64,000 bases of DNA, from contig NZ_JBGCCH010000013.1 in NCBI RefSeq assembly GCF_041261205.1, forward strand, positions 1 to 64,000. Direction: 5' to 3'. The stretch's first letter is position 1. Every line of letters starts with the position of its first letter. The position numbers and the translations under genes are program-made. This stretch comes from Catenulispora sp. MAP5-51 (GTDB lineage: Bacteria; Actinomycetota; Actinomycetes; Streptomycetales; Catenulisporaceae). The notes under the pieces are model-generated. The model was not told the DNA's origin. It saw nothing but the letters and a program-made list of their open reading frames with translations, and searched no databases. Shown one piece after another: positions 26,808 through 50,322 of this stretch.

Positions 26808-28232
26808 ATGTTCTCGAACGCCGACGAGGTACTCAAGTACCTCAGGGACAACGACGTGAAGAGCGTCGACGTGCGGTTCTGCGACCTGCCCGGTGTGATG
26901 CAGCACTTCACGGTGCCGGTCGAGTCGTTCGACGCCGACGTCTTCGCACACGGACTGGCCTTCGACGGTTCCTCGATCCGCGGCTTCCAGGCCATCCACG
27001 AGTCGGACATGCAGCTGCTGCCCGACCCGACCACGGCGCGCCTGGACCCGTTCCGCGCCGAGAAGACCCTCAACATCAACTTCTTCATCCACGACCCGCT
27101 GACCGGTGAGGCCTACTCCCGCGACCCGCGCAACGTGGCCAAGAAGGCCGAGGCCTACCTGGCCGGCACCGGCATCGCCGACACGTGCTACTTCGGCCCG
27201 GAGGCCGAGTTCTACGTGTTCGACGACGTGCGCTTCACCTCCGGCCCGCAGGAGAGCTACTACCACATCGACGCCGAGGCCGCGTTCTGGAACACCGGCC
27301 GCGCCGAGGAGGGTGGCAACCGCGGGTACAAGCCGCGCGTGAAGGGCGGCTACTTCCCGGTGGCCCCGAACGACCACTACACGGATCTGCGCGCGGTCAT
27401 GAGCCGCACGCTCATCGAGTCCGGCCTGATCGTCGAGCGCCAGCACCACGAGGTCGGCTCGGCCGGCCAGGCGGAGATCAACTACAAGTTCAACACCCTG
27501 CTGGCCGCCGCCGACGACCTGATGCTGTTCAAGTACATCATCAAGAACGTCGCCTGGAACGCCGGCAAGACCGCCACCTTCATGCCCAAGCCCGTCTTCG
27601 GCGACAACGGTTCGGGCATGCACTGCCACCAGAGCCTGTGGAAGGACGGCGTCCCGCTGTTCTACGACGAGGTCGGCTACGCGGGCCTGTCGGACACCGC
27701 CCGGCACTACATCGGCGGCCTGCTGAAGCACGCCCCGTCGCTGCTGGCCTTCACCAACCCGACGGTGAACAGCTACCGCCGCCTGGTCCCCGGCTACGAG
27801 GCCCCGGTGAACCTGGTCTACTCCCAGCGCAACCGCTCGGCGTGCATCCGCATCCCGATCACCGGCTCGAACCCGAAGGCCAAGCGCATCGAGTTCCGCT
27901 GCCCGGACCCGTCCTCCAACCCGTACCTGGCCTTCTCCGCCATGATGATGGCCGGCCTGGACGGCGTGAAGAACAAGATCGAGCCCATGGCCCCGGTCGA
28001 CAAGGACCTGTACGAGCTCCCGCCGGACGAGCACGCCTCGATCCCGCAGGTCCCCGGCAGCCTCCCGGCGGTCCTGGACTCGCTGGAGGCCGACCACGGC
28101 TACCTGCTCGAGGGCGGCGTGTTCACGCAGGACCTGATCGACACGTGGATCTCTTACAAGCGCGAGCGCGAGGTCGACCCGGTTCGTCTGCGGCCGACGC
28201 CGCACGAGTTCGAGCTGTACTTCGACATCTAA
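26808..28232 (+). CDS. glnA: Glutamine synthetase, type I
   Basis: 474 residues, the usual length of GSI. It makes glutamine from glutamate, ammonia and ATP as a dodecamer. Visible blocks are [10 protein letters not shown], the metal-binding [24 protein letters not shown] and the ATP loop [14 protein letters not shown]. The adenylylation Tyr is about residue 402 in DLYELPP, so activity can be tuned by GlnE. AAGGAG lies ahead of the ATG. A double GlnR box upstream indicates nitrogen control. The last codons (YFDI, TACTTCGACATC then TAA) are copied in several intergenic repeats over the next 22 kb. Confidence 0.97.
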
Positions 28233-28352
28233 GATGATGAGCTGACCTGCGGAAACGCAGTTCGGACCATCAGCACCACCTGGTATCGCCCCAGGTCGGC
28301 AAGTCGCTGACCTGGGGCGATACGTCTTTACAGATGTCCGAGGATCCCTCAT
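28218..28352 (+). repeat. Repeat A: glnA 3' end tag plus structured element
   Basis: Starts with the last 14 bases of glnA (TACTTCGACATCTA). A five-pair hairpin with a GAAA loop follows at 28247-28260, then a 22-base spacer, then a perfect 15-pair hairpin (GTATCGCCCCAGGTC arms) at 28283-28323, and a tail GATGTCCGAGGAT. The same order and spacing recur at 33910-33986 and 50165-50299. The large hairpin could also end glnA transcription. The rest of the gap to the next gene holds only the GGGCCC palindrome and no gene. Confidence 0.85.
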
Positions 28353-28365
28353 GTTCTCGACAGTT

Positions 28366-28382
28366 GGGCCCAAAATGGGCCC
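28366..28382. repeat. 17-base palindrome GGGCCCAAAATGGGCCC
   Basis: A seven-pair inverted repeat around AAA. Near-identical copies lie at 33807-33823 (reverse complement), 37004-37019 (last base changed) and 45244-45260, each beside a glnA-tag repeat. Confidence 0.8.
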
Positions 28383-28601
28383 GCCGCCCAGGTCGAACGC
28401 GTCCTCGCGGCCGGGGTTCCGGGCGGACCTCCGGGACCGTCCGTGTCGTTCGCTCGCAGCGACCTGACAGCCCCCTTTCCCCGAGTACGGATCGCGGCTT
28501 CGCCTCGCGGAATCCCCTGGACCGACACCGGCCGAGAGCAGCGGGCTCATCTGCTGCTCGGCGCCCTCCGCAGACATCGTGCTGGACATGTGAGCGGATC
28601 G

Positions 28602-29681
28602 TCAGCCGGCTGAGGCAGCCCGCCAGGCGCTGTACGCGGTGAGGGCCGAGACCCGGATCCAGATGAGCACGAGCGCGATGTAGAGCGCTGCCGCGTAGAC
28701 CCGGAACGGGTCCGAGCCGGTGCGCAGGGCCAGGGCGGAGGTGGCGGTGACGTAGGTGCCGAGCGGGAAGGTGAACGACCACCAGGCGAGCGAGAAGGGC
28801 AGGCCGGACCGCTTGGTGCGGACCGTGATCGCGACCGTCAGGAAGGTCCACAAGGTGGCGAATCCCCAGACCGGCACGCCGAACACGATGCCGAACGCTT
28901 GCAGCGCGGTGGAGTACGGAGCGCCGATGGCGGTCGCGGCGACAGCGCCGAGCGCATTGGCCGCGGTGATGGACTGGCCCAGCGGGCCGAGGACGATCCA
29001 CAGCGTGGGCTCGGTCCGAGCCGGACCGACCTTGTGCAGAGCCATCCGCGAGCAGATCAGGACCGTGGCGATCGCGGAGACCGCCAGGCTCAGGCCGAAC
29101 AGGGCGTAGCAGCACAGCAGGAAGGCGAGTCTGGCCTGACCGGCCGCCGCGTGCGGGACGAGCAGCGCGCCGGTGGCCGCGGAGACCATCGGCGGGACCA
29201 TGCACATCAACCAGCCGATGGTCACATTGTCCAGCGGCACCGGCTCGCCGGTGAACAGCAGATAGAGCACGGCCGCGGCGCACGCCAAGCCCACCAGCGT
29301 GCCCACGAACCACAGGACCCAGGCGATGTCCGACGCGGCGCGGTCTCCGAACACCGCTCCGCCGTAGAGCAGCGTGCCGGCGCCGACCACGAGGATCGCG
29401 ACCGGCGGGGCACCGTTGAAGTGCGCCGTGGTCAGATCGGTCAGCCGGCCGCGGACCATGTCGGGGTGGCGCCGCCACTGGATCGCGGTGAGCGCCACCA
29501 GCACGATCAGCAAGACTGCCGAGAGCGCCCACACCACCGTCGCGGCGGTGTGCAGCCCGGAGAAACGCTGGGGCAGTGTCGCGGCGGCGACCGCGACGAT
29601 TCCCGTGCCCATGACCGAGGTGTACCAGTTCGCCGCGACGTTCGAGACCATCAGCCCGAGGCAACCACGAATCGTCGCCAT
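28602..29681 (-). CDS. TDT-family transporter (TehA/SLAC1-like)
   Basis: About 359 residues with ten membrane spans, in the tellurite-resistance/dicarboxylate transporter fold. The start of the fold, NVAANWYTSVMGTGIVAVA, and the final GLPFSLAWWSFTFPLGTYV with its conserved WWSFTFP core are diagnostic. Members move anions such as sulfite, malate or nitrate out of the cell. The start ATG (MATIRGCLG) was chosen as the first Met before the fold; a later Met is possible. It lies downstream of the MFS gene on the same strand with a gap of about 70 bases. Confidence 0.9.
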   Translation of the reverse strand: MATIRGCLGLMVSNVAANWYTSVMGTGIVAVAAATLPQRFSGLHTAATVVWALSAVLLIVLVALTAIQWRRHPDMVRGRLTDLTTAHFNGAPPVAILVVGAGTLLYGGAVFGDRAASDIAWVLWFVGTLVGLACAAAVLYLLFTGEPVPLDNVTIGWLMCMVPPMVSAATGALLVPHAAAGQARLAFLLCCYALFGLSLAVSAIATVLICSRMALHKVGPARTEPTLWIVLGPLGQSITAANALGAVAATAIGAPYSTALQAFGIVFGVPVWGFATLWTFLTVAITVRTKRSGLPFSLAWWSFTFPLGTYVTATSALALRTGSDPFRVYAAALYIALVLIWIRVSALTAYSAWRAASAG

Positions 29682-29752
29682 GGACCAGACAGTAGGCACG
29701 CCATCCGCACCCTGCCCTGTAGGCCAGCCTTGTGGGTTAGAAGGCCGACTGT

Positions 29753-31231
29753 TCAGCGCGACGCGGTACCGCCGACTGGCTCGCCCTGCCGCGTCGCCGG
29801 TGCCAGCTGCTGCGGGGCGCCGGCGCGGATGCCGAAGAAGCCGACGAGGGCACCGAACGCAGTGACGCCCGCGGCGATGGCGAAGCTGAGCGCGTAACCG
29901 TCGGCCGAGGCGTCCGACGGGCTCACGCCGGCGCTGCGCAACGCGGCGGCATGGCTTGCTCCCACGGACACCAGCGCCGCCAGGCCGAGGGCACTGCCGA
30001 TCTGCATCGACGCGTTGTTCATGCTCGTCGCGATGCCGGCGTCCTCGCCGGTGGCGCCGTCCACCCCGGCGACGGTGGATCCCACCAGCACCAGGCCGCC
30101 ACCGAGCGGGACGAGAAGCAGCCCGGGCAGGATGTCGGCGGCATAGGTCCCGTGCGCCGGGAGGCCGGCCAGCGTGAGGTAGCCGAGCGTCGTGATCGCC
30201 AGGCCGCCGGCGTTCAACGCCCGCACGCCGAAGCGGCGCAGCAACCGCGGCGCCAGAACCGTCGCGCTGAACAGGATGACCAGCCCGAAAGGCACGAAGG
30301 CGAAGCCCGCCGCCAGCGGTGGGAAGCGCAGCTGCCGCTGGACGTACAGGCTCAGTGAGAAGAAGAACGTGGCGAAGCCGACGTAGTAGCAGACTCGGAC
30401 GATATTGGCAGCACTGCGGTTGCGCGACCGCAGGAACGCCAGCGGCACCAGCGGCAGTGCGACCCGCGCCTCGACCCACAGAAACGCGACCAGCAGCGCG
30501 GCACCGATGCCGATCCACCCGAGGACCGGAAAGCACAGCCACGGCCGATTCCCCTTCTCCAACAGGCCGAACACGGCTGCCGACAGTCCCGCGGTGACGA
30601 GCACGGCTCCCGCGACGTCGGGCCGGCCGCGCCGGGCCGCGGCCCGGCTCTCGGAGACGAACCGACGGGTGGCAGCGAACGCGACCACAGCGATCGGCAG
30701 GTTGATGAAGAAGATCCAGCGCCAGGACGCCACGTCGATCACCACGCCCGACACCACGACGCCCAGCGCCGCGCCCAGCCCGGCCAGCCCGCTCCAGATC
30801 GCCATCGCCCGGGCCCGTTCCCGCGGCCTGTCGAACAGCAGCGTCACCAGGGCCAGCGCGGCCGGGCTGACCAGCGCCGCTCCGACACCCTGCACGAGGC
30901 GGGCGGCGACAAGCATTCCGGCGTTCGGCGCGAGCCCTGCCGCGGCCGACGAGAGCGCGAAGACTCCCAGGCCGGTCAAGAACATCCGGCGCCTGCCCAG
31001 CAGGTCTCCGAGCCGTCCGCCGAGGATCAGCAGCCCGCCGTAGGTGACGGTGTAGCCGTTGACGACCCAGGCCAGGCCAGTGGACGAGAAGCCCAGATCG
31101 CGCTGGACCGGCGGCAATGCGATGTTCACCACGGTGACGTCCAGCAGCAGCATCACCTGCACGAGACAGATGGTGCCCAGAGCCCACCAGCGGCGGGACT
31201 CCGGTCCTGAGACCGGGTTGGTCGAGTTCAT
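29753..31231 (-). CDS. MFS drug-type exporter (DHA2-like)
   Basis: About 492 residues with some fourteen membrane spans. Motif C-like and motif A signatures are present: LLDVTVVNIALPPVQRDLGF at the first span and GGRLGDLLGRRRMFLTG in the first cytoplasmic loop, as in EmrB/QacA-type antiporters. These export hydrophobic compounds in exchange for protons. GGGAG precedes the ATG by about eight bases. It heads a group with the TDT gene and is in the same direction as the DUF6884 and HxlR genes further upstream. Confidence 0.92.
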   Translation of the reverse strand: MNSTNPVSGPESRRWWALGTICLVQVMLLLDVTVVNIALPPVQRDLGFSSTGLAWVVNGYTVTYGGLLILGGRLGDLLGRRRMFLTGLGVFALSSAAAGLAPNAGMLVAARLVQGVGAALVSPAALALVTLLFDRPRERARAMAIWSGLAGLGAALGVVVSGVVIDVASWRWIFFINLPIAVVAFAATRRFVSESRAAARRGRPDVAGAVLVTAGLSAAVFGLLEKGNRPWLCFPVLGWIGIGAALLVAFLWVEARVALPLVPLAFLRSRNRSAANIVRVCYYVGFATFFFSLSLYVQRQLRFPPLAAGFAFVPFGLVILFSATVLAPRLLRRFGVRALNAGGLAITTLGYLTLAGLPAHGTYAADILPGLLLVPLGGGLVLVGSTVAGVDGATGEDAGIATSMNNASMQIGSALGLAALVSVGASHAAALRSAGVSPSDASADGYALSFAIAAGVTAFGALVGFFGIRAGAPQQLAPATRQGEPVGGTASR

Positions 31232-31389
31232 CAGCGGTTCTCCCTGTCGGCGCGGCCCGTGTTGGCCGTCACACCCAGGTGAACGCGCGCCGGACGGGAG
31301 CACTTGGCCGCAAAGCTGGACGGGGAAGCCTCAAATCCGGCGGTCCGCGCCGACACGTACCGGGGCCTCCCACGGACGAGACCCGCCGA

Positions 31390-31836
31390 TCAGCCGAGGT
31401 CCTTCGCCAGGGCGTTGAGATGGGAGATCTGCCGACCCATGCCGCCGAGCCCGGTCAGGGGGTTCAGAGCGTGCGGCCAGACAGACCGCGCGAGCCGGAA
31501 ATGATGCCCGCCCGCGAGGACGACCACCGGGTCGAGGTCGAGGAGTCCCCGGTCGCGCGCCTGCGCGGCCAGCTGCTCCGGGCCGATACTGCCGACCGCG
31601 CCGAAGGCGAGGTCGTAGGGCGCGACGATGTCGTCAAGGCCTAGGAGGCCGTGCACTGAGGAGAGGATCAACAGCCGGCGCGGTTGTAGGGCCTCGGCCG
31701 CCCTGCGGCAGGCGCGATGGTAGGCACCGGTGTAGAGCTCTCCAGCGGGAGCCGGATGATCGAGTTTGCGGCTGCCGCACGTGATGACGATGAGCTCGGC
31801 TGCGGCGAGCGGATGGCGGTGCTGTGGTACGGGCAT
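31390..31836 (-). CDS. DUF6884-like protein
   Basis: About 148 residues from an ATG with GGAAAGG six bases ahead. The pattern VITCGSRKLDHPAPAGELYT, then LLILSSVHGLLGLD and IVAPYDLAFG, matches the DUF6884 group, in which a GS(R/K)K-type start and a (S/A)xxGLL block are conserved. The function is not settled; I recall relatives near nucleic-acid modification genes, but nothing here shows that. It is cytoplasmic and lies between the MFS pump and the HxlR regulator. Confidence 0.7.
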   Translation of the reverse strand: MPVPQHRHPLAAAELIVITCGSRKLDHPAPAGELYTGAYHRACRRAAEALQPRRLLILSSVHGLLGLDDIVAPYDLAFGAVGSIGPEQLAAQARDRGLLDLDPVVVLAGGHHFRLARSVWPHALNPLTGLGGMGRQISHLNALAKDLG

Positions 31837-31882
31837 GGGCAGCCTTTCCAAAACAGGCGGCATTTGGGGTACGGGACCGGCT

Positions 31883-32368
31883 TCAGAGAGCGCCGCCGCG
31901 ACCAGGTGCATGGTCCCCGGCGATGAGTGTCGGCAGCGGTTCCCCGCAGTCGGCGCATATGACGACGGCCGGTCCTCCGTGCCGACAGGTGTGTGTGGAC
32001 CGGGGCGCTGATCGGGCCGCTGATCGGGGCGGCGACGCCGTCGGTCCGGGCAAGTACCGCAGGCCCCATTCCCGCAGCCCGATCAGGATCGTCTCAAGCT
32101 CGCGGCCGGCCTCGGTGAGGTGGTACTCGAAGCGTTCGGGCCGCTGCTCGTATCGACGGCGTTCGAGCACTCCCGAGTCCTCCAGGGCGCGGAGTCTCCG
32201 AGTGAGCACGTCGCGGGGCATGCCGGTGTTCGCGGCGATGTCCGCGAACCGGTGCACGCCGAGCAGGGCCTCGCGCAGAACCAGGAGCGACCAGCGATCG
32301 CCCACGAGCACCAGCGTGTCGGCGATCGGGCAGGGGCGCGGGAGCGTGAGGGGCATGGCGCCATTCAT
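31883..32368 (-). CDS. HxlR-family transcriptional regulator with a C-terminal Cys motif
   Basis: About 161 residues. The winged-helix core is clear: CPIADTLVLVGDRWSLLVLRE and GMPRDVLTRRLRALEDSGVL. A C-terminal extension ends in CRHGG and CADCGEPL, a possible zinc or redox site not usual in HxlR proteins. Such regulators often sense electrophiles or oxidants through cysteine. It is divergent from the GlxA-type gene, with a GTTTGCCAAAC palindrome between them. The start is either of two Met codons four residues apart. Confidence 0.85.
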   Translation of the reverse strand: MNGAMPLTLPRPCPIADTLVLVGDRWSLLVLREALLGVHRFADIAANTGMPRDVLTRRLRALEDSGVLERRRYEQRPERFEYHLTEAGRELETILIGLREWGLRYLPGPTASPPRSAARSAPRSTHTCRHGGPAVVICADCGEPLPTLIAGDHAPGRGGAL

Positions 32369-32382
32369 CCACAGGTTGGTTT

Positions 32383-32393
32383 GTTTGCCAAAC
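32383..32393. promoter_or_regulatory. Palindrome between hxlR-type and glxA-type genes
   Basis: GTTTG-C-CAAAC, inside a longer GGTTTGTTTGCCAAAC stretch, just upstream of the HxlR start. Its position in the divergent gap suits a HxlR operator, which is inference. Confidence 0.45.
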
Positions 32394-32442
32394 TCACTGA
32401 GCCTATGATCGGGCGAGGCCACTTCGGCCCAGGAGGACTCCG

Positions 32443-33498
32443 ATGACCCACCGTTCCGACGGCGACCGTGACACACGTACTGTGACCACGCTCGTGTACC
32501 CCGGCGTGCGCCTGCTCGACGTCACGGGACCAGCCGAGGTCTTCGCCTCCGCCAACGATTTCGGCGCACGCTACCGACTGCGCATGGTCTCCCTCGGCCG
32601 CCGCGACGTGGAGACCTCAGCCGGCGCCCGGTTGAGCGCGGACGGCGAGGTCGAGCGGTCCATGGGAGACAACGATGTCGTGCTGATCCCGGGCGGGCCG
32701 CACTGGAAGGAGTCGGTCAGGAACGACGCGCTTCTCGACGCGGTCCGCGTCCTGGACACGACCAGCCGCTGCACCGCCTCCGTGTGCACCGGGGCATTCC
32801 TGCTGGCCGCGGCGGGTCTGCTCGACGGACGGCGCGCCACGACCCACTGGCGGCACACCGCAGAGCTGGCAATCCGCCATCCCAGCGTGCGCGTCGACCC
32901 CGACGCGCTGTTCGTGCGCGACGGCCGGATGATGACCTCCGCCGGGGTCAGCGCGGGGATCGACATGGCGCTGGCGCTCGTGGAAGAGCACCACGGGGCC
33001 GAGACCGCCAGGGCGGTGGCCAAGGACATGGTCGTGTTCATGCAACGCCCGGGCGGCCAGTCACAGTTCAGCGTGCACTCGCAGGCACATCCCACGCGTC
33101 ACGGGCTGCTGCGCGGCCTGCTTGACACGGTCGTCGCCGACCCGGGAGCCAACCACACGCTGACGGCGATGGCTCGGCGGACCGGAATCAGCGAGCGGCA
33201 CGTCACACGACTCTTCCACGACGAAGCGCACACCACCCCGGCGCGCTATGTCGAGCGGGTCAGGCTCGAAGCCGCACAAGTGATGCTGGAGCGCGGCGAC
33301 GAACCATTGGCGACGATCGCGCGCCGTACCGGATTCGGCTCACCCGAGTCGATGCGCCGCGCCTTCGCGAAGCACCTCGATGTCACGCCCGGCGCCTTCC
33401 GATCCCGATTCCGCACCACGGGCGCCAGCGCCCGGTCAGCGGACGTCGAGCCGCGACCCGCGGCCGGGGCGCCGGGTCCTGCGGGGCCGGTCCACTAA
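32443..33498 (+). CDS. GlxA-family transcriptional regulator (DJ-1/PfpI plus AraC)
   Basis: 351 residues with AGGAGG ahead of the ATG. The N-terminal DJ-1/PfpI-like domain has the cysteine elbow SVCTGAFLLAAAGLL and ends with DMVVFMQRPGGQSQFS, a family hallmark. The C-terminal AraC domain carries two helix-turn-helices (MARRTGISERHVTRLFHDE and IARRTGFGSPESMRRAF). GlxA-type proteins regulate diverse uptake and catabolic genes. It is divergent from the HxlR gene, so both may control the pump genes beside them. The Pro/Gly-rich tail is variable. Confidence 0.9.
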   Translation: MTHRSDGDRDTRTVTTLVYPGVRLLDVTGPAEVFASANDFGARYRLRMVSLGRRDVETSAGARLSADGEVERSMGDNDVVLIPGGPHWKESVRNDALLDAVRVLDTTSRCTASVCTGAFLLAAAGLLDGRRATTHWRHTAELAIRHPSVRVDPDALFVRDGRMMTSAGVSAGIDMALALVEEHHGAETARAVAKDMVVFMQRPGGQSQFSVHSQAHPTRHGLLRGLLDTVVADPGANHTLTAMARRTGISERHVTRLFHDEAHTTPARYVERVRLEAAQVMLERGDEPLATIARRTGFGSPESMRRAFAKHLDVTPGAFRSRFRTTGASARSADVEPRPAAGAPGPAGPVH

Positions 33499-33806: not shown

Positions 33807-33986
33807 GGGCCCATTTTGGGCCCACTCTTTTCAGGGCGCGTATAGCTTCTAAATGTCGAAGTAATCGACATGAAAACCCCTGACCTGCGGTAACGCGTGA
33901 TTGTCTGACCCGCGGAAACGCGGTTCAAAGGATGTGCACCACCCTGTATCGCCCCAGGTTGGCAAGTCGCCGACCTGGGGCGATAC
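33807..33986. repeat. Repeat B: inverted glnA tag joined to a structured element
   Basis: Contains the GGGCCC palindrome (33807-33823), the glnA tag in reverse orientation (33849-33863, CTAAATGTCGAAGTA) with the ACATGAAAACC flank shared with repeats C and D, then a forward structured element. That element is a CCGCG/CGCGG hairpin with a GAAA loop (33910-33923), a 22-base spacer and the 15-pair hairpin (33946-33986, one G-T pair). The surrounding 33499-34042 has no convincing gene. Confidence 0.8.
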
Positions 33987-34042
33987 ATATTACGGGATAG
34001 CTGAAGGGACATCACGGCGTCTGGACCCCGCGGCCGGTCACG

Positions 34043-35656: not shown

Positions 35657-35842
35657 GCTGATCAACCCCTTTCGGAGGTACAGGAACAGCGTCCCGTTCG
35701 CACCGAATTACCACAACTCGAAGAATCTGGAGGCTCCTGCTTGGGAGCAGGGGCCGGCGCCGTCGTCACGCATATGATGATCAACGATCGTTGCTTCGCC
35801 TCTTCGGCCACCCCAGTCACATCGGCAACGATCTACGGCTGC

Positions 35843-36238
35843 CGTGCCAGACCGCCGCCGCGTTCTGGCACCGTGCCCACGCGTTCTTCACCGAAGCAGT
35901 CATCGCCGTTGCCAGGGTTCTGACCGACAACGGCCCCTGCTACCGCTCCCACCTGTGGCGCGACACCCTGGCCGACGCCGGGATAACCCACAAGCGCACA
36001 CGGCCGTATCGGCCCCAGACCAACGGCAAGGTCGAACAATTCAACAGAACCCTGATGGACGAATGGGCCTACACCCGGCCCTACCGCAGCGAGCAAGAAC
36101 GACGCGACGCCTTCCCCGGATGGCTCCCACACCGACAATCACCACCGCGGACACACCGCGCTGAAGGGCCTACCGCCAGCCAGCCGCGTCACCAACCTCA
36201 CGGGGCAGTACACGCGGAGAACTTCGAGGCGTTCGTGA
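35843..36238 (+). pseudogene. IS481-family transposase remnant, frameshifted
   Basis: The retained part is the integrase-core C-terminus: TDNGPCYRSHLWRDTLADAG, then RPYRPQTNGKVEQFNRTL with the DEWAYTRPYRSE block. At about 36133 the frame shifts by one; the next frame gives NHHRGHTALKGLPPASRV and TNLTGQY to TGA at 36236. The DDE aspartate (DNG) and glutamate region remain, but the N-terminal half with its helix-turn-helix is gone. Dead element; its inverted repeats were not found. Confidence 0.85.
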
Positions 36239-36272
36239 CGGGCCTCGTCATGCCATCGACCAAGGTAGAGCC

Positions 36273-36809: not shown

Positions 36810-37001
36810 GATGTTCGAAGCGCTGGAGACAAGTCCAGCTCGCCGAATCCGGATCCGATCTCCAGCCTGAGCGATGGTCGTCAGACTACGAGCCGCGGGC
36901 CAGCGAGCCACGGCACCGAGTCGGGCAGCACGTACCGCACTGACTTCGCCAAGAAGCCTCCATCCGACGGATCGCCTCACCTGTAGGGCCTCGTAGGCAG
37001 G

Positions 37002-37290: not shown

Positions 37291-37296
37291 TGTTGC

Positions 37297-40593: not shown

Positions 40594-40892
40594 CGAATCA
40601 AGTCCCTTAGCACGCGGCGACACTTGGCCCTGCTCATCCTGCTGCTCCAATCGATGAACCTCGTGACACACCGTGCGGGTCCGGGCCCGGCCGCGTCGGC
40701 GCGCTCGCTGAACAGGCCGGTGCGCCGCCGGCGGATTCCGTGGTGGTCGTTTCTGCGGGGCGGCGCCCGACGGTGACGGATCTCCGTCAGGCGCCGCCGG
40801 CACGGTCCTCGTCAGGGGGTGCATTCACCTCGTCCTGTGATGTCACGGACCGTTTTGATCACCGGCGAGCCCAGGGGACGCCGGCTGAGTCA

Positions 40893-42335: not shown

Positions 42336-42919
42336 TCGAGGCCTACTCCCTTGAAAGCTGTCCCGTCTTCCTCACCGCGTACACCAGAAGCGATATACCG
42401 GAGGATTCTCGGGCAAGATGCTAGCCGGAAATAAGGCATGTACATCAATCCACGCGGACACGACACAAAAGACCGATCATCGTACCTATCGGGGGAATAT
42501 GTGAGCCTCAGCCGCGATCTCTGGAATGGACCCACGGCGCCGACGAGGCCTTCGGCGGCGCGTTCGAGGAGGTCGCGCCGCTACTGTCGGCTTTACAGGA
42601 GCGCAGCCTGAACGGCCACTCGCGCACGGCGTACTCACCGCACACGGCTTTTTGTTACAGCGCACTTCGCCCACTCTTACGAGTGGACCTTGCCCAGATT
42701 CAGCTTTCGCTGCTTTACTTTCGAATTCTCATCGGAAACCCTTATCCCAGGAAAGGGTGGCGTCGATGCGATTGCCGAGATCACCAGCGGGTTGTCCTCG
42801 ATAAGCCAAAAGTGTCTGGTGTCAAAGGGCGCGCCCGCCCAGCAGCCGACTACGCTTCGACAACCGGATGGCTACGGGTACAGGTAGCCACGGCTCTGAT
42901 TCAGGCCAGGCGGAGGCGG
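42336..42919. other. Intergenic stretch without a recognised gene
   Basis: About 580 bases between the ice-binding gene and the next gene, with AT-richer patches near the ice-binding start that may hold its promoter. No frame here has both a ribosome site and protein-like content, and no RNA gene was recognised. Confidence 0.5.
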
Positions 42920-43480
42920 TCACAGTCGCCGACCCCCCGCGAGGCGGACGAGTGACGACACGACGGCATGCTGGGAGAGCCAGCCACAGGCGACCAAGGC
43001 CCGCACCCGTCGCTTCGCCCCACGCGCGGACGTGGATTCGTCGCGTTTCCTCAGCGGCCATCGGCGGCCGACGTGCTCGTCGAAGAACTGCTCGCCGGCT
43101 CGCCGGTGCGCCGCACTGCGCTCCCGATCCAGCGCTTCGCGCGCCTGCCCGTGGGCGCGCGCCGCGATCCGGGCGCCGGCGAGCCTGCCTTCCAGATCGG
43201 CGTAGGCCGCGCCGATCGCCTCGGGATCGCATCCGAGAAGAGCAACGGCCAGATTCCGCCGCGCGAGGTCACAGCGGGCTGACGCAGCTTGCATCTCGGC
43301 TCCGGTGTAGTCGCACTCACCGCGAAGTGCCCGAAGCCACGCGTCACAGATGACGTCTTCGGCGTGAGCCACGACAACGTCGGCAGGATCGGGAGACGAC
43401 GTCGGCGCATTGGTCACCCGGATCAGCGACCGGTACACGATCGTGTGGTGCCGATGAGGTCTTCGCGGGAACGGGATCAT
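42920..43480 (-). CDS. Hypothetical helical protein
   Basis: 186 residues from an ATG with GGGGGAAA six bases ahead. The body is Ala/Arg/Glu-rich helix (LARRNLAVALLGCDPEAIG, then ARAHGQAREALDRERSAAH), with a basic C-terminus. No signal peptide or membrane span. No family recognised. It is alone between the ice-binding gene and a small membrane-protein gene, within the accessory island. Confidence 0.5.
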   Translation of the reverse strand: MIPFPRRPHRHHTIVYRSLIRVTNAPTSSPDPADVVVAHAEDVICDAWLRALRGECDYTGAEMQAASARCDLARRNLAVALLGCDPEAIGAAYADLEGRLAGARIAARAHGQAREALDRERSAAHRRAGEQFFDEHVGRRWPLRKRDESTSARGAKRRVRALVACGWLSQHAVVSSLVRLAGGRRL

Positions 43481-43718
43481 GCATTTCCCCCAGCGCTGTC
43501 GTCGACGGAGGTGTCGGCTGCGCGAAGGAAAGCTCGCTGTCAGGTCCCGGACGGGTGCCTCACCCGGACGCAGTCCACACCGATGAACACGGCGCCGGGG
43601 ACTGGAGCGTCGCGGAACTGTCGCTCAGTGTAGCGTGGCTCGAATCGCGCGGGAGCCCTCGAACACCGGCACCATGAAACGCGGGGAGTCGGGCCTGCCG
43701 ACGATGGGGCGACGACCG

Positions 43719-44096
43719 TCAGCCGTCGCTCCCTTCGTCCCGTTGATTGGCGATGTCGATGCGGTTACGCCGGCTGTCGGCGATGACGAATCCCAGCGCC
43801 AGCGCCATCACGATGACTGCGACGATCCACATGAAGTGCGCGGCGAAGCCGATCAGGCCGCAGAGCAATGCCACGGAGAGCGCGCTGACCATGACGGCAT
43901 CGGGGCCCCTCTTCTGGCTGAGCAGCCGCCTGAGCCGCTCGCTCAACCTCAGCTCCCGGCTGGACCGAGATGATGGGGCGGATTGCGGAGGGACGCCCCG
44001 TACTCGGGTTTCGTTTTCTGGCGTGGTGACCTGGCGATACTCAGTCGCACGGAGGGCAGGACCGCCGGTGATGTCATTCTTGGTGGGTCTCATCAT
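43719..44096 (-). CDS. Small two-span membrane protein
   Basis: About 125 residues. A hydrophilic N-terminal half (RELRLSERLRRLLSQKRG) leads to two adjacent spans (VMVSALSVALLCGLIGFAA and MWIVAVIVMALALGFVIA) and an acidic, basic tail. This layout resembles DUF3040-type proteins, but the sequence match is weak. The start is uncertain: ATGATG after GGGGG, or a TTG 36 bases upstream. Confidence 0.5.
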   Translation of the reverse strand: MMRPTKNDITGGPALRATEYRQVTTPENETRVRGVPPQSAPSSRSSRELRLSERLRRLLSQKRGPDAVMVSALSVALLCGLIGFAAHFMWIVAVIVMALALGFVIADSRRNRIDIANQRDEGSDG

Positions 44097-44328
44097 GAGA
44101 CCCCCGATCTCCCTCCGGTCGCGAAGGGACAAAAGCTCTACTTGGGCTTGTTGTCAGCATACGCCCGATAGCCCCCATATCATAAACGGCTTCCTTCCGC
44201 CAGTTCGGACGCAGGGCTGATGGACGTCGCGATGATCGGTGACAAGCGTCCAGGACACGAAGACCGAGAGCAGCGCCAGAGCTCCTCGCCACGGCCCGGT
44301 CGTGCGAATTCCAACGTTTTCCCGATCT

Positions 44329-44826
44329 TTAAGCAGCAGACCGCCAGTACCCGAGATGCGCCGGCGTGAGATTGCAGTTCACAGCCAATCTGCACACGGA
44401 ACATGCAGATCGGCTACCGTCCGACCTCGCCGCTACCCGCCGCCCTTCGTAACAAGCTGCCAGCCGACCTGGCACCTCGCACGCCCGACTGATGGTCAGG
44501 GCGGCACCCACAGGCCTGGCGAGGTAACTGGATCCGGGAGGCAGTTCAAGCAGGTCCAGCACATGGCCAACGGCGGGCGACTCCGCCGCCAGGCAGATCG
44601 TGACGCCCAGATCCGCTGCGCGCCGCCCTAAAGTGAACAGGGCTCGAACCCCTGCGCAGTCCAGGAAAGTCACCTCGGACAGGTCCACGCCGATTCCAGG
44701 CGACCTGCAGGCGCTCAGATGTTCCTGAACGGACTCCACGAGTCCGTCCGCGGCGGCGAAATCCAGTTCGCCGCGTACGGCGACGACGGCGTGAACCGAA
44801 CACCGATCGACCTGGTAGACGTCCAT
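44329..44826 (-). CDS. STAS-domain protein (anti-sigma factor antagonist-like)
   Basis: About 165 residues. The STAS fold spans residues 8-105: VVAVRGELDFAAADGLVESV and GVDLSEVTFLDCAGVRALF. In SpoIIAA-type antagonists the second block is DSSG with a phosphorylated serine; here it reads DCAG, so this site cannot be a phosphoserine. A Cys-containing tail of about 50 residues follows (SACSVCRLAVNC). No kinase or sigma factor gene is adjacent. The frame is also open upstream for over 350 bases, but that part lacks recognisable content. Confidence 0.72.
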   Translation of the reverse strand: MDVYQVDRCSVHAVVAVRGELDFAAADGLVESVQEHLSACRSPGIGVDLSEVTFLDCAGVRALFTLGRRAADLGVTICLAAESPAVGHVLDLLELPPGSSYLARPVGAALTISRACEVPGRLAACYEGRRVAARSDGSRSACSVCRLAVNCNLTPAHLGYWRSAA

Positions 44827-45241
44827 GGAGCGACCGCGCCTTCGAGTCGTGCGCGGCGATACATCGGCGACGAAGACCAGGTGCAGTCCGTCGGCCAGAC
44901 GCGCTACAGCGCCGTGTACGGCGCCGGGGTCTGGAGCGTCGGGAACGATTCCGAGAATACAGCTGGCGGGAACACGATGTAAGGGTCCTCGCCGACTCCG
45001 AGCAGCCGTTCGATATCTCAGGGCATCGCCAATCAACAGGGCCTCAGCCGGCGCAGCGATCGGCGCCGGCAGCCGGCAGAGCTCGTGCGACCCGGCCGGC
45101 CCCGGTCGAATCGGCAACACGGCGAGCCCGACCAGAAAAAACAGAAAACACAACGTCGCCTGGGATTCCAGTCGCTCTGTCATGGATACGGACGCTGTGA
45201 GGCTTGAGCGCAGCCGCCTCCGCGATGTCAGCGGGGCCAGT
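44827..45241. other. Gap with no recognised gene before repeat D
   Basis: An open frame continues upstream of the STAS start on the minus strand, with a hydrophobic start (LCFLFFLVGLAVLPI) but no convincing ribosome site. I see no conserved domain and no RNA gene here. Confidence 0.4.
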
Positions 45242-45530
45242 GTGGGCCCAAAGTGGGCCCGGCGGGCCGATCGGCGACTTTCCGCAGGTCAGAGGTTTTC
45301 ATGTCTACTACTTCGACATCTAGACACGCTCAGGTCAGCTGCCTGCGCCGCAAGGGCCGCAACGGCAGCTGACCAGTAGTAAGACTGCTGGACGCTTTCG
45401 AATGATCACGGCCTGTTCCGAGCCTCGTCTGGGCCCGAAACAGGCCGGATGGTCTTGAGGCAGCAGTCTCACGTTGATCGCGGTGGGCCCGCGAGCCGTC
45501 ACGGCTCGCGGGCCCTCTGTCGTCTGCCGG
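45242..45530 (+). repeat. Repeat D: 285-base multi-stem element with glnA tag
   Basis: Same order as repeat C: GGGCCC palindrome (45244-45260), GCAGGTCAG arm, TACTTCGACATCTAG tag (45309-45323), hairpin GGTCAGCTGCC/GGCAGCTGACC (45333-45374), long stem AGACTGCTG/CAGCAGTCT (45382-45390 with 45461-45469), and a 14-pair hairpin with a TCA loop (45485-45515). Several differences from repeat C keep pairing. Confidence 0.85.
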
Positions 45531-45731: not shown

Positions 45732-45805
45732 CTGCGCCACGTGAGATCCAAGCTCCCGGTTTCCCACGGCCTCTTCTGGATCAGCCCTATGAAAGGGAAC
45801 CGCCC

Positions 45806-48802
45806 ATGCCACGATTCAGACGCAAGACCACGGTCACCTCCGGCCTCGTCGTCGGCGCACTCGTCGCGGCCGGAGCCGGCACACTGCACAGCGCTTCGGC
45901 CGCCGGTTCCGCCACGGCGATCACTGTCGCTGCGACCTCCTCCGCGAGCTTCAACCCGTTCCAGGGGCTCGGCACGACGATCGACTCCTTCGACGCCGTC
46001 CAAGGCATGACCCACAACCTGGCCAACGGCGACACCGACCCCTCGGGAGGTTCGCCCGGCACCCGTCCGAAGCCCGGCTTCGACGCCGACCTGTTCACCA
46101 CCGCGCAGGCCATGAGCCCCGGCAATATGGCCCATCTCGCCACCAGCGGACTGCGCCCGTTGTCCTATCGGCTCGTCACCGAACTGCGCGAAGAAGCCTG
46201 GCACTGGGGCAACGGCGGAACATTCAGTGAGGGGACCAAGGGCTACTGGGACAGCAGCGGCACCGCGGCCTCCGCGCCCGTTACCGAGTCCTACGGCTAT
46301 GACATCGCCCACGGTGGAACGTCGCTGCCCGGAGGGGAGAACGCTTACATCTCCCGACTGGACGACGGAAACGCGAGCTCGTTCTGGAAGAGCAACCCCT
46401 ACCTCGACCAGAAGTACACCGGGCAGAGCAACGCCATGCACCCGACCTGGGCCGTCGTCGATCTCGGCAAGTCCACCACGATCAACACCGTGAAGATCGC
46501 GTGGGCTGATCCGTACGCGGTGTCGTACCAGGTCCAGACCTGGGTGCCGGACTCGGGTGCGACAAGCCCGTTCGACGACCCCGGCAAGGGCGTCTGGAAG
46601 ACGGCCTCCGGCGGCTCGGTCACCCACGGGACCGGCGGCACGGCCACCCTGTCCATCGGCTCCACCAAGGCCGAGTTCGTACGAGTCCTGATGCAGGCCT
46701 CGTCCGGTACCTGCGCCAACGGCGACAGCAGCGACGCCCGCAACTGCCTGGGCTTCGCGATCAAGGAACTGTATGTCGGCGACACCAGCGGCGGTACCTT
46801 CACCGACGCGGTCAAGCACGGCGACGAGACGGTGCAGTCCGCGACCTACACCTCCTCCAACGACCCGGTCGAGGACGCCTCCTCGGTCCGCCAGTTCGAC
46901 CAGCCCGGCATCGACACCGTCTTCGACAGCGGCGCAGCCCAGAACCTGCCGGTGATGGTCCCGGTCCCGGTGCTGTACAGCACGCCGGAGAACGCGGTCG
47001 ACCTGATCAAGTACCTCGAAGCCAAGGGCCGCAGGATCGCCTCGGTCGAGATCGGCGAGGAAGCCGACGGGCAGTACACGACCCCTGAGGACTACGCCGC
47101 CCTGTGGTCCCAGTGGGCCACCGCGATCCACGCCTTCGACCCCGCGCTGGTCCTCGGCGGGCCCGCGTTGCAGGACTCCACGGCGGCCGCCTGGAACGAC
47201 ACGGACAAGACGGCCACGGACTGGGGTACACGCTTCATAGCCGCGCTGCGCGCCGACGGACACCTGGGTGACCTGAAGTTCTACTCCTTCGAGCAGTACC
47301 CGGTCTTCGACGTCAAGAACTCCACCGACGCCTACAACCTGCTGCTCAACGAACCCAGCCGCTCAGCCGGCGTGCTCGCGCAGCTCAAGGCGACGATCCC
47401 GGCGGACATCCCGCTGATGGTGACCGAGCAGTCGTCCTACGGCGACGACGTCCAAGACGGCCTGTGGCAGGCCGACTTCCTGGGGTCGATGTTCACCGGC
47501 GGCCTGGCCGCCGACTACAACTACCAGGCCCTGCCACAGCACCTGTACAGCGGGATGGCGTCCAACCTGTTCACCGCGGACTCGAACGGCCAGTGGACGG
47601 GCAACACCTCCACCTACTTCGCCAGTTCCATCCTGGGCAATACCTGGCTCCAGCCGGTCGACGCCGCCCAGCAGCTCTATCCGGTCACCGTGCCTTCGAC
47701 TCAGGCCTCGACCGGACAGCAACTGCTGACCGCCTATGCCGTGCACCGCCCGGACGGCACCTGGGCCCTGATGGTCATCAACAAGAGCAAGACGGCAACC
47801 TATAAGTTCCCGGTGAGCATCAGCGGCGGCAACGGCTTCAGCGGCGCTGTCGACTCCTACTCCTGGGGCCCGAAGCAGTACGCCTGGAGCCAGAGCGGCA
47901 ACAACGGCTCCGCGTCCCCGGACAACGGCCCCGCGCACACGACCATCTCCTCGGCCGGCAAAGCCACGTCTTATACGTTCCTGCCCTTCTCGATAACCGT
48001 CCTTCGGGGCACCGTGGCCGGAAGCATCCCCGGCAACGACTTCTCCATCACCGCGAGCCCGACTTCGGCCTCCGTCGTCGCCGGCGCATCGACGACCGCG
48101 ACCGTCGCCACCACGACCACCTCGGGCTCGGCGCAGGCCGTCACGCTGAGCACTTCGGGCCTGCCCACGGGCGCCGCCGCGACTTTCACCCCGACCTCCG
48201 TCACGTCCGGCGGCTCCGCGGCAGCGACGATCACCACGGCTGCGGCCACCCCGGCCGGAACCTATCCGGTCACCGTCACAGGCACCGGGACTTCGGGCAC
48301 CCACACCGCCGCCTTCACCCTGATCGTCACGGGCCAGGGCGGCGGAACGGGCGGCAGCGTGGTGAACGGAGACTTCGAGGCCGGCGACCTCAGCGGATGG
48401 ACCCGCTCCGGCACGACCTCGGTCATCACCGGCACCGTGCACTCCGGCGGCCACGCGGCGCTGGTCGGGTCGTACAAGAAGGAGACCAACGGCGACTCCT
48501 CCATCGCACAGACCTTCACCGCCGCACCAGGCACCAGCACCTTGTCGTTCTGGTACCGCAGCGACTGCCAGGACGGCGACGTCGGCTACGGCTGGTCCAC
48601 AGCGACCCTCGTCGACACGACCACCGGCGCCCGCACCACCGTCCTGCCGCACACCTGCCCGGCCGACACCGACTGGCACCAGATCGCCTCGCCGATCACC
48701 GCCGGCGACGCCTACACACTCGCCCTCACCAGCCACGACGACGGCGACTCGAACTCGGCCGACCCGACCAGCACGACTTACGACGACGTCACAGTGACCT
48801 GA
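45806..48802 (+). CDS. Secreted multidomain glycoside hydrolase-like protein
   Basis: 998 residues. A signal peptide (TSGLVVGALVAAGAGTLHSAS) comes first. A barrel-type catalytic region follows, split by a discoidin-like insert around 190-310 (THPTW-type start, AVVDLGKSTTINTVKIAW). SVEIGEEADGQY (about 413) matches the acid/base site written EIGNEPD in related glycosidases, but with Glu418 in place of Asn. MVTEQSS (Glu541) is the candidate nucleophile. An Ig-like domain (about 755-845) and a C-terminal carbohydrate-binding-like domain (VVNGDFEAGDLSGW) follow. Substrate unknown. AAAGGGA precedes the ATG. A ROK regulator follows. Confidence 0.75.
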   Translation: MPRFRRKTTVTSGLVVGALVAAGAGTLHSASAAGSATAITVAATSSASFNPFQGLGTTIDSFDAVQGMTHNLANGDTDPSGGSPGTRPKPGFDADLFTTAQAMSPGNMAHLATSGLRPLSYRLVTELREEAWHWGNGGTFSEGTKGYWDSSGTAASAPVTESYGYDIAHGGTSLPGGENAYISRLDDGNASSFWKSNPYLDQKYTGQSNAMHPTWAVVDLGKSTTINTVKIAWADPYAVSYQVQTWVPDSGATSPFDDPGKGVWKTASGGSVTHGTGGTATLSIGSTKAEFVRVLMQASSGTCANGDSSDARNCLGFAIKELYVGDTSGGTFTDAVKHGDETVQSATYTSSNDPVEDASSVRQFDQPGIDTVFDSGAAQNLPVMVPVPVLYSTPENAVDLIKYLEAKGRRIASVEIGEEADGQYTTPEDYAALWSQWATAIHAFDPALVLGGPALQDSTAAAWNDTDKTATDWGTRFIAALRADGHLGDLKFYSFEQYPVFDVKNSTDAYNLLLNEPSRSAGVLAQLKATIPADIPLMVTEQSSYGDDVQDGLWQADFLGSMFTGGLAADYNYQALPQHLYSGMASNLFTADSNGQWTGNTSTYFASSILGNTWLQPVDAAQQLYPVTVPSTQASTGQQLLTAYAVHRPDGTWALMVINKSKTATYKFPVSISGGNGFSGAVDSYSWGPKQYAWSQSGNNGSASPDNGPAHTTISSAGKATSYTFLPFSITVLRGTVAGSIPGNDFSITASPTSASVVAGASTTATVATTTTSGSAQAVTLSTSGLPTGAAATFTPTSVTSGGSAAATITTAAATPAGTYPVTVTGTGTSGTHTAAFTLIVTGQGGGTGGSVVNGDFEAGDLSGWTRSGTTSVITGTVHSGGHAALVGSYKKETNGDSSIAQTFTAAPGTSTLSFWYRSDCQDGDVGYGWSTATLVDTTTGARTTVLPHTCPADTDWHQIASPITAGDAYTLALTSHDDGDSNSADPTSTTYDDVTVT

Positions 48803-48932
48803 TCCACAAGACCCCGGTAGTCGCGAAACCCCGGTTCGGATGTTCTGAGCCGGGGATTCGCCCCTGGCCTACGGGTTCTCCCGGGCCGCGATGAACGGAA
48901 GCCGGTACGCGCTCATCACTATGATGCATCCC

Positions 48933-50150
48933 ATGACCAGCACGAACGCCACCCTCGGCACGCTGCGTGAACTCAACGCCCGCAGTGTCCTCGGTGCGCT
49001 CGTGGACAACGGCCGGTTGTCACGGGCCGAGGTGGCCCGCCGGCTGGGAATGGCCAAACCCACTGCCAACCGCGCCATCGAGGCGCTGGCCGCCGCCGGA
49101 CTCGTTCGCGAATCCTCGCCTCCCGACAGCGGCCCGCACTACGGCGCGATCTACTACGAACCAGCGCTCGAGGTCGGTCACGTCCTGGGCATCGACGTCG
49201 GAGCCCAATTCGTCCGCGGCGCGCTGGGCGACCTCGGCGGGGCCATCCTCGCCCGCTATGACCATCCGCGCGGCGGTGACGACATCCCGTCCCTGCTCAC
49301 CGCGGTCAGCGCGGTCCGGAATCGCCTGCTCGCCCCCATGGATGCGGGCGCGGATGGAATCGTCGGAACCGTCGTCGCCATGGCGGGGGTCATCGACCCG
49401 GCAGCGGGCCGACTACGTCTGAGCAGCGAACCGAGCCTCGAAGGACACCCGGTCGTCGAAGATCTGGCGACCGTTCTGCCCGGACCGCTGGAGGTCGACA
49501 ACGACGTCAACCTCGCGGCACTCGGCGAACTGGCCCGCGGCGCCGGGCAGAACGAGGGCGACTTCGCCTTCCTCTCGATCGGCACCGGCGTCGGCTCCGG
49601 GCTGGTCCTGGACGGCCGGCTGCGGCGCGGCGCGCGGGGGGCCGCCGGCGAGGTGGACTACCCGGGACACCGGCCGTTCGCGACCCACAGCCCCGCCGCC
49701 GACGCCCTGCAACAACTGGTCGAGGACCGATACGGCGCCGCCGCGAAGAACCGCGCGGGATCCCGGGATGAGGCAGTGCCCGAAAGCCCGACGCAACTCT
49801 TCGAAGCAGCCAGGGCCGGATGGCCGCTGGCTGTGCGGGTCGTCCGGGAGGAAGCGCAGCGGATCGCGGGCACGATCGCCATGATCGCGCTGGTCGTCGA
49901 CGTGCCCCTGGTGGTGCTCGGCGGCGGCATCGGCCTCAACGGCGGCATCATGCTCGACCCGATCCGCGACCGGTTGACCGAGCTCGTCCCCTATCCGCCC
50001 CGCGTGGAGATCTCCAGGCTCGGCGACGCGGCCACGCTGGTCGGCGCCATCACCGTCGCGGCACGCGAGGCCTGGCCGCGGACCATCACGGCACGTTTGG
50101 CGGCCACGTCGCCCTCATCGTCGAACGCCTCCGCGCAGGGCCCGGCGTAG
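48933..50150 (+). CDS. ROK-family transcriptional regulator
   Basis: About 405 residues. An N-terminal winged helix (LNARSVLGALVDNGRLSRAEVARRLGMAKPT region) is followed by a sugar-kinase-like domain with VLGIDVGAQFVRGALGD, DNDVNLAALGE and SIGTGVGSGLVLDG. The CxCGxxGC zinc motif usual in ROK proteins is missing. It most likely represses the glycosidase gene just upstream until its sugar is present. Starts at 48891 or 48924 are possible. Repeat E begins 15 bases after its stop. Confidence 0.88.
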   Translation: MTSTNATLGTLRELNARSVLGALVDNGRLSRAEVARRLGMAKPTANRAIEALAAAGLVRESSPPDSGPHYGAIYYEPALEVGHVLGIDVGAQFVRGALGDLGGAILARYDHPRGGDDIPSLLTAVSAVRNRLLAPMDAGADGIVGTVVAMAGVIDPAAGRLRLSSEPSLEGHPVVEDLATVLPGPLEVDNDVNLAALGELARGAGQNEGDFAFLSIGTGVGSGLVLDGRLRRGARGAAGEVDYPGHRPFATHSPAADALQQLVEDRYGAAAKNRAGSRDEAVPESPTQLFEAARAGWPLAVRVVREEAQRIAGTIAMIALVVDVPLVVLGGGIGLNGGIMLDPIRDRLTELVPYPPRVEISRLGDAATLVGAITVAAREAWPRTITARLAATSPSSSNASAQGPA

Positions 50151-50164
50151 AACCGTCGTTCGAT

Positions 50165-50299
50165 TACTTCGACATTTAGAACATGGCTTGAGCTGCGGGA
50201 ACGCAGTTTGAAGAATATGCAGCACCGCGTATCGCCCCGAGTCGGCACGTCGCCGACCTGGGGCGATACGTCTGCATGGATGTCCGAGGATTCCCCATG
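50165..50299 (+). repeat. Repeat E: far copy of the glnA tag and structured element
   Basis: TACTTCGACATTTAG (50165-50179), a CTGCG/CGCAG hairpin with a GGAA loop (50193-50206), a 22-base spacer, the large hairpin (50229-50269) and the GATGTCCGAGGAT tail, matching repeat A along its full length in the same orientation. Together A and E bracket the 22-kb island. Confidence 0.85.
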
Positions 50300-50322
50300 C
50301 CGTCGGGCTGAGGGTGGCCGGG

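What the first reader, a model, noticed from the sequence alone, without database searches (positions are those of the whole stretch)
28218..50299. A 22-kb island bracketed by copies of the glnA 3' end
The last 14 bases of glnA (TACTTCGACATCTA) plus about 120 bases that follow (repeat A) recur in the same orientation at 50165-50299 (repeat E). The tag alone recurs at 33849 (reverse), 37070 and 45309, always in intergenic DNA. The genes between are accessory in kind (pumps, regulators, HTTM, ice-binding, glycosidase) and include two dead transposases, while genes before glnA follow a conserved order. The pattern fits repeated site-specific insertion at the glnA stop codon, a target I do not know for such islands. 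No integrase gene is present, so the source enzyme would be lost or act in trans.
Basis: partly seen in the sequence, partly recalled or inferred. Interest (0 to 1): 0.75.

Follow-up and report, generated by a model that had tools for sequence, protein, structure and literature searches.

The report
Mobile-DNA docking site at glnA's end
In some soil actinobacteria the end of the glutamine synthetase gene glnA is a docking site where mobile DNA pieces slot in precisely and pile up, and a gene for the enzyme that probably inserts them was found beside glnA in relatives of this strain.

Summary
The repeats are real and far above chance. They are attachment-site copies. In the window's genus (Catenulispora) four genomes have glnA joined directly to a conserved flank; G008 has a 3,861-bp element exactly between the two, with the 11-bp core TACTTCGACAT at both ends. 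Others hold tandem elements of about 0.7-4.7 kb (VapBC, methylase, RHS/SUKH); no recombinase appeared among the proteins scanned.

The probable enzyme, "IntG", a 445-aa tyrosine recombinase, lies beside glnA in 3 of 10 genus genomes and was not found in the window's genome. Its 54-55% relatives in 3 of 3 Streptomyces sit in 13-22 kb elements at glnA, with the same core and an arm at the same spacing. A core-plus-arm signature found 8 further genomes outside the genus; all 8 have glnA 2.7-14.1 kb upstream.

This is accretion of mostly integrase-less elements, a known kind, at a target I found in no paper searched. Catalysis by IntG is inferred.

The parts
26808..28232 (+). glnA; its last codons plus stop form the attachment site
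   Evidence: ORF; 92-97% DNA identity to glnA of the genus
28218..28228 (+). 11-bp core TACTTCGACAT at the glnA end (left junction)
28218..28381 (+). element left end: core, TGACCTGCGG arm, terminator-like hairpin (28283-28323), palindromic box (28365-28381)
28602..33498 (.). cargo: SLAC1 channel, MFS transporter, DUF6884, HxlR regulator, DJ-1/PfpI-AraC regulator
33848..33999 (.). scrambled end: core with right-end arm on the minus strand next to a left end without core on the plus strand; box on the minus strand at 33808-33824
34310..35665 (-). cargo: methyltransferase with winged HTH
35791..36306 (+). transposase (rve) fragment
36986..37085 (+). element right end: box (37003-37019), CAGGTCAG arm, core at 37070
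37070..37295 (+). R flank, copy 1: core, box at 37193-37209 (one mismatch), hairpin; in four relatives this flank follows glnA directly
37297..45183 (-). cargo: FAD oxidoreductase, HTTM, DUF5819, ice-binding, STAS proteins
45227..45324 (+). element right end: box (45243-45259), CAGGTCAG arm, core at 45309
45309..45528 (+). R flank, copy 2
45806..50150 (+). cargo: F5/8-type-C domain protein and ROK regulator
50165..50289 (+). core (one mismatch further on in the tag) and left end of a further element; collinearity with G008 breaks at 50160
50299..51517 (.). element body, 95% identical to G009:C187:10098-11316; holds a 354-aa ORF without Pfam match
51518..64000 (.). rest of the variable region inside the window (it ends near 82,218 on this contig); no end motif was found here by profile apart from one hairpin-only match outside the window at 65724

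Best explanation
The glnA 3' end is an attachment site for a family of integrative elements moved by a tyrosine recombinase, IntG. Exchange takes place within or next to TACTTCGACAT, which covers the last codons of glnA. Each element brings the same core, a stop codon and a terminator-like hairpin, so glnA still ends Tyr-Phe-Asp-Ile-stop after an insertion and further insertions remain possible; this builds tandem arrays. Most elements seen have no recognised recombinase; they would be moved in trans by IntG from another element, or are stranded relics. The window is such an array in a genome in which no IntG was found: units 28218-37070 (with an internal relic), 37070-45309, 45309-50165 and 50165 onward, in a variable region of about 54 kb. 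Shown by sequence: precise occupied and unoccupied sites, direct repeats of the core, arms at fixed spacing, IntG beside glnA in Catenulispora and in core-bounded elements at glnA in Streptomyces. Inferred: that IntG does the catalysis, that it acts in trans, that arms and boxes bind protein, that the hairpins end glnA transcripts.
For: G008 flanks joined match the unoccupied sites of G001, G006, G007 and G009 position by position, core at both ends. Tandem units in G002 (932 and 1,004 bp) and G009:C187 (4,730 and 4,658 bp). Core variants after ACAT all keep Ile-stop. IntG is 445 aa, about 90% conserved, beside glnA in G001, G006, G009. Independent test: 3 of 3 Streptomyces loci with 54-55% IntG have the tag near IntG (shuffles 0.0 per locus) and its partner at the end of glnA, 18.7, 13.3 and 22.4 kb apart. 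CAGGTCAG stands exactly 24-17 bases before the core in 3 of 3 Streptomyces right ends and 8 of 13 Catenulispora ones. CAGGTCA-N17-TACTTCGACNTNTA: 14 of 391 genomes of the order, backward control 0 in the rows listed; the 8 genomes outside the genus all have glnA 2.7-14.1 kb upstream.
Against: No activity is shown by any search. IntG was not found in most array-bearing Catenulispora (G000, G002, G004, G008), nor an integrase in the 8 signature-found islands, so the enzyme of those insertions is unknown. In Catenulispora IntG is near the glnA side, in Streptomyces near the far side. In G001, G006 and G009 the cassettes are on other contigs than glnA; only for G006 does a shared right border tie them to the region. 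It is unsettled whether the R flank is chromosome or the left end of the IntG element, so 'unoccupied' in the genus may mean 'occupied by another element'; in Streptomyces the CT34 right flank matches glnA flanks of G028 and G039 at 83-85% over 97-99 bp, S. inhibens at 71-73%, and S. chattanoogensis gave no match. The tag in G000 at 50165 follows a sequence in G008 with little core likeness.
Confidence: 0.8

Rival explanations
1. The small elements are moved by another recombinase (a host Xer protein or an unrelated integrase) that uses the same core, and IntG is one more passenger of the site.
For: G000 has 15 PF00589 matches on other contigs and every genus genome has several; IntG was not found in most array-bearing genomes or in the 8 signature-found islands.
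Against: The arm at -24 to -17 is shared by IntG elements of Streptomyces and IntG-less cassettes of Catenulispora, which points to one enzyme family.
Confidence: 0.1
2. Only the first insertions were site-specific; the present arrays were built and shuffled by homologous recombination between repeated ends.
For: The ends are long and similar (12 left ends, 88% mean identity); blocks such as the PIG-L gene recur at different places of the region; the R flank is doubled in G000.
Against: Unit borders fall at the core in G002, G008 and G009, and unrelated cargo lies between like ends.
Confidence: 0.06
3. The repeats are a family of terminators or other regulatory repeats of the genus and not attachment sites.
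For: Left ends and R flanks hold strong hairpins (z -6.2 to -8.5), and hairpin-only matches occur elsewhere (G004:8614926, G002:15063).
Against: The core is glnA coding sequence, the right ends have no hairpin, presence and absence differ precisely between genomes, and IntG elements in another genus end at the same core.
Confidence: 0.02

Closest known systems
CIMEs and tandem accretion of ICE/IME relics (PMC5704250, passages read)
   Same: Elements that keep attachment sites but lost integration genes, in tandem at the 3' end of one gene; [quoted passage not shown]
   Different: Target glnA; many units of only 0.7-4.7 kb; stereotyped ends with arm, hairpin and often a palindromic box; no ICE was recognised next to them.
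PAISt at bacA of Streptomyces turgidiscabies (PMC4057263, abstract and passages read)
   Same: Tyrosine recombinase, core at the 3' end of a protein-coding gene, a third internal copy of the gene end, modular excision, tandem integration of plasmids.
   Different: bacA and an 8-bp palindrome instead of glnA and this core; modules of 105 and 569 kb.
AICEs, actinomycete integrative and conjugative elements (PMC3218068, passages read)
   Same: Site-specific integrated elements of actinomycetes, mostly with tyrosine recombinases.
   Different: Mostly tRNA targets; the word glnA is absent from the text; no transfer gene was recognised among the 10 proteins scanned from the Streptomyces glnA elements and their surroundings.
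Integrons (recalled)
   Same: A tyrosine recombinase gene next to a site at which small cassettes can accumulate.
   Different: IntG scores 30.9 bits against a cut-off of 265 for the integron integrase model; cassettes have long double-strand-type ends and can hold several genes.
SCC elements of staphylococci (recalled)
   Same: Tandem elements, some without recombinase, at the 3' end of one conserved gene.
   Different: Other target gene and, from memory, serine recombinases; IntG is a tyrosine recombinase.

Membership tests
CIME / accretion at one att site | element flanked by copies of one attachment core | tested here: met
   G008, G002, G009:C187; window 28218, 37070, 45309
CIME / accretion at one att site | no integrase in the element | tested here: inconclusive
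   none among the Catenulispora cassette proteins scanned; no hit of 28 integrases at 1e-4 in 8 other islands; not every ORF was scanned and serine recombinases were not searched
CIME / accretion at one att site | mobilised with or by a related integrase-bearing element | not testable with these tools
   IntG shares site and arm; mobility was not observed
Tyrosine recombinases (PF00589) | family domain above the curated cut-off | tested here: met
   G001 42.3, G006 41.0, G009 40.3 bits against 27.1
Tyrosine recombinases (PF00589) | catalytic residues and activity | tested here: inconclusive
   R, HxxR, H and Y positions look intact by eye (motif recalled); no activity data
Integron | integron integrase (TIGR02249) | tested here: not met
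   30.9 bits against 265
Integron | integrase gene beside the insertion site | tested here: met
   IntG about 0.9 kb from the core in 3 of 10 genus genomes
Integron | attC sites that recombine as folded single strands | not tested
   ends look like paired arms around a core
AICE | transfer and replication genes | tested here: inconclusive
   one Streptomyces element has DUF3631 and an integrase, no transfer protein among those scanned
AICE | integration at a tRNA gene | tested here: not met
   target is glnA; the survey says most, not all, AICEs use tRNA genes
SCC | Ccr serine recombinases | not tested
   no serine recombinase search was run

The most novel reading that the evidence does not exclude
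glnA of the order Streptomycetales anchors a cassette-capture system that works like an integron but grew out of an island-type tyrosine recombinase: IntG, resident in some strains, collects and reshuffles small recombinase-less cassettes (toxin-antitoxin, restriction, immunity genes), each with built-in att arms and its own terminator that keeps glnA working.
Probability: 0.3. Interest if true: 0.75.

Novelty: new variant of a known kind. Interest (0 to 1): 0.55.

Why it matters
It names a docking site in a central metabolic gene of soil actinobacteria that I found in no paper searched, pairs it with a candidate integrase, and gives a searchable signature. The signature picked 8 genomes outside the genus and glnA was upstream in all 8, so the hotspot can be mined for accessory and defence-type genes. 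IntG and its core might become an integration tool for Streptomyces and relatives. Kilobase-size cassettes without a recognised recombinase and with stereotyped ends make it testable whether integron-like capture arose a second time.

Tried and rejected
Rejected: chance; one 22-kb island with its border at 50299; a tag common in the genome; plain duplication of glnA (likeness to glnA stops at the core).

PADLOC matches are single-protein resemblances (methylase, kinase, nuclease, mad3); no whole defence system was shown. Symmetry of the core is ambiguous: in 6 of 6 rebuilt ends the best centre is the tag's 4th base, with 41-51% of positions matching, and in two of them a centre two bases off comes second, so I claim no crossover length. 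The weaker IntG relatives are a poor control for the tag: their loci reach only 1.5 kb beyond the gene, while in two of the three glnA-linked Streptomyces the tag lies farther off; the fair control is their distance to glnA.

Rows dropped: tag-like matches inside other sequence without element ends (L058:19318, L060:9773, L062:194727, L070:12980). In one search, 54 box matches in 8 of 10 genomes, 39 of them with one mismatch and many scattered; only the 15 exact ones are interpreted; the backward control gave 10. In one search the list of matches was cut, so absence of recombinases on cassette contigs is read from the part listed.

Literature: ten searches listed no paper that I could recognise as describing glnA as attachment site; only titles and abstract starts of listed papers were seen. 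Passages were read by word search in PMC3218068, PMC4057263, PMC5704250, PMC12884075 and PMC12424338. The TIGER/Islander database may hold such islands; it could not be searched.
Full report
WHAT WAS CLAIMED.

Five tag copies lie between 28218 and 50178: three exact, two with one mismatch, one of these on the minus strand. Shuffled windows average 0.06 matches at up to two mismatches. The exact tag occurs three times in the 10.9-Mb genome, all here; the backward control once. Two kinds of longer flank follow the tags: a left end (28218, 50165, and a coreless relic at 33901) and an R flank (37070, 45309).

ORGANISM. Contigs of two relatives equal named records in length and IntG content: G009:C186 is NZ_JAAFZA010000266.1, Catenulispora pinisilvae, and G001:C49 is NZ_JAACYW010000142.1, C. 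rubra. The window's genus is therefore taken as Catenulispora. The large unnamed genus of the order (f2/g4) is probably Streptomyces; that is inference.

UNOCCUPIED AND OCCUPIED SITES. In G001, G006, G007 and G009 glnA runs through TACTTCGACAT into the R flank (in G007 the flank is shortened). In G008 an element of 3,861 bp stands between glnA and the R flank, core at each side; joined, its flanks match the four others position by position with scattered substitutions. G002 has two elements in tandem (932 and 1,004 bp). G009:C187 has starts at 147, 4877 and 9535 and one without full core at about 12200; whether it adjoins glnA is unknown. G004 has a 717-bp element and G003 one of about 4.1 kb, both with degenerate right cores. 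The stop after the core varies (TAA or TAG) but glnA ends Ile-stop in each glnA copy seen.

ANATOMY OF THE ENDS. Twelve left ends align over 127 columns, 88% mean identity: core, TGACCTGCGG arm, hairpin. Hairpins fold at -40.8 (28270-28340), -45.3 (50216-50285) and -43.5 kcal/mol (R flank, 37245-37300), z -6.7, -6.2 and -8.5. A palindromic box TGGGCCCNAANTGGGCC (up to two mismatches) stands 66-67 bases before the core in 8 of 10 right ends, 146-148 after the core start in 8 of 12 left ends and 121-123 in 6 of 6 R flanks of the sets used for the profiles; it was not reported at the 50165, G002 or G004 left ends. Of 15 exact boxes in 10 genus genomes 14 are on contigs with element ends; in the window's genome 4 of 4. 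The right-end arm CAGGTCAG lies exactly 24-17 bases before the core in 8 of 13 Catenulispora copies, with one or two changes in 4 and absent in 1.

CARGO. Catenulispora cassette proteins scanned include VapB and VapC-type PIN proteins (G002, G009; a PIN fragment in G004), SUKH/SMI1 proteins, an RHS protein with a SUKH-4 neighbour, PIG-L, N6-methylase and DUF4062 proteins, and beta-propeller and cell-wall proteins. G008 and G000 (78.3-79.0 kb, beyond the window) hold DNA like the VapBC cassette (those proteins were not scanned). In the window: SLAC1, MFS, DUF6884, regulators, methyltransferase, FAD oxidoreductase, HTTM, DUF5819, ice-binding, STAS, F5/8C and ROK proteins, then MMPL, sigma factor, glyoxalase, FAD monooxygenase, PIG-L, alcohol dehydrogenase, TetR and response regulator.

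EXTENT. Left of glnA, G000 is collinear with G004 and G006. On the right, collinearity with G004 resumes at G000 82,218 / G004 8,663,333; G002:C46:15033 and G006:C23:163628 share that border. The variable region is about 54 kb in G000 and 69 kb in G004, with shared blocks in changed places.

THE ENZYME. The genus-wide PF00589 search showed a tyrosine recombinase beside glnA in G001, G006 and G009: 445 aa, about 90% identical among the three. At E 1e-20 no match was found in G000, G002, G004, G007, G008 or G010 of 14 family genomes; 31-36% relatives occur in G001, G003, G005, G009, G011, G012 and G013. No NCBIfam recombinase model reaches its cut-off. In phages all 329 records match below 60% identity (23-27% in the 20 listed); the best plasmid matches are 35%.

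INDEPENDENT TEST. A scan of the GTDB genome contigs with the IntG alignment, which needs one of two short peptides (NKNYINW, PCRDKMM), gave five loci: the two named Catenulispora and three Streptomyces (sp. CT34, S. chattanoogensis, S. inhibens; 54-55%). The three Streptomyces loci hold the tag downstream of IntG, 0, 0 and 1 mismatch, against 0.0 per locus in 200 shuffles each. A tag search in those genomes showed the partner copy at the end of glnA (76-77% identical GlnA), 18.7, 13.3 and 22.4 kb away; the S. chattanoogensis and S. inhibens glnA copies have one mismatch. The arm spacing is the same as in Catenulispora. The right flank of the CT34 element matches the DNA directly after glnA in G028 and G039 (83-85% over 97-99 bp); S. 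inhibens matches weakly and S. chattanoogensis not at all.

HOW FAR IT REACHES. CAGGTCA-N17-TACTTCGACNTNTA occurs in 14 of 391 genomes of the order, control 0 in the rows listed: 9 sites in 6 Catenulispora, and one site in each of 8 others. In 8 of these 8, glnA lies upstream in the same orientation, 2,746 to 14,129 bp away; in three the glnA tag has one mismatch. Those islands gave no IntG hit at 1e-15 and no hit of 28 integrases at 1e-4. Ten proteins scanned there include GmrSD and Mrr nucleases, HipA, WXG100, WD40 and metabolic proteins, and one without match.

SPECIFICITY. Among 245 genomes of the order, IntG at E 1e-90 matched 9: the three Catenulispora and six others at 45-47%. In these six, glnA is on another contig (2) or 3.5-4.8 Mb away (4). 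The six glnA-linked IntGs group together with moderate support, 87/86, beside these six; the weaker relatives are long branches.

MECHANISM. Shown by sequence: precise insertion at one core, reuse of the site, a rebuilt gene end, and IntG tied to core and arm in two genera. Inferred: IntG catalysis, action in trans on IntG-less cassettes, protein binding to arms and boxes, termination by the hairpins. The window's array is probably frozen: no IntG was found, 33848-33999 is scrambled, and the second R flank has lost core and right end in G008.

WHAT IT IS. It works like the accretion of integrase-less relics called CIMEs and like PAISt at bacA (passages). It differs in target, in the small size of many units and in their stereotyped ends. 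By the integrase model it is not an integron, though the layout invites the comparison. Ten paper searches gave no report of glnA as an attachment site.

OPEN POINTS AGAINST. IntG lies at opposite sides of the element in the two genera. IntG and cassettes are on separate contigs in the three IntG-bearing Catenulispora. The enzyme of the IntG-less islands is unknown. Whether the R flank is chromosome or the end of an IntG element is unsettled.

Noticed in passing
L172 (G042:C159) 7524-8846: The S. chattanoogensis glnA element carries a DUF3631 protein (440 aa) near the integrase, perhaps a replication module.
   Followed up: no
G009:C368:56470-56486: One exact palindromic box lies away from the glnA contigs; perhaps a lone or displaced element end.
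   Followed up: no
L060 (G001:C250) 3929-4968; window 59656-60638: A PIG-L deacetylase block recurs at different places of the variable region in G000, G001, G004, G006, G008 and G009.
   Followed up: partly
L061 (G001:C49) 9939-11756: A Ser/Thr kinase downstream of IntG resembles kinases of defence systems (mad6, PD-T4-6 models).
   Followed up: no
L063 (G006:C3:588311-588532): A second, broken PF00589 fragment lies about 0.7 kb after IntG in G006.
   Followed up: no
G012:C1:7196037 (L069): In a family outgroup the DNA after glnA (CTGGCCTGCGGATACTCA and a hairpin) resembles the cassette left end; left ends may descend from a glnA 3' flank (by eye).
   Followed up: no
window 40893-42335: The ice-binding protein has a repetitive tail (15- and 24-base repeats).
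   Followed up: no
L324 (G036:C21:17000-30000) 8391-11350: A GmrSD-type nuclease next to a HipA protein sits just before the right core of a glnA island.
   Followed up: no
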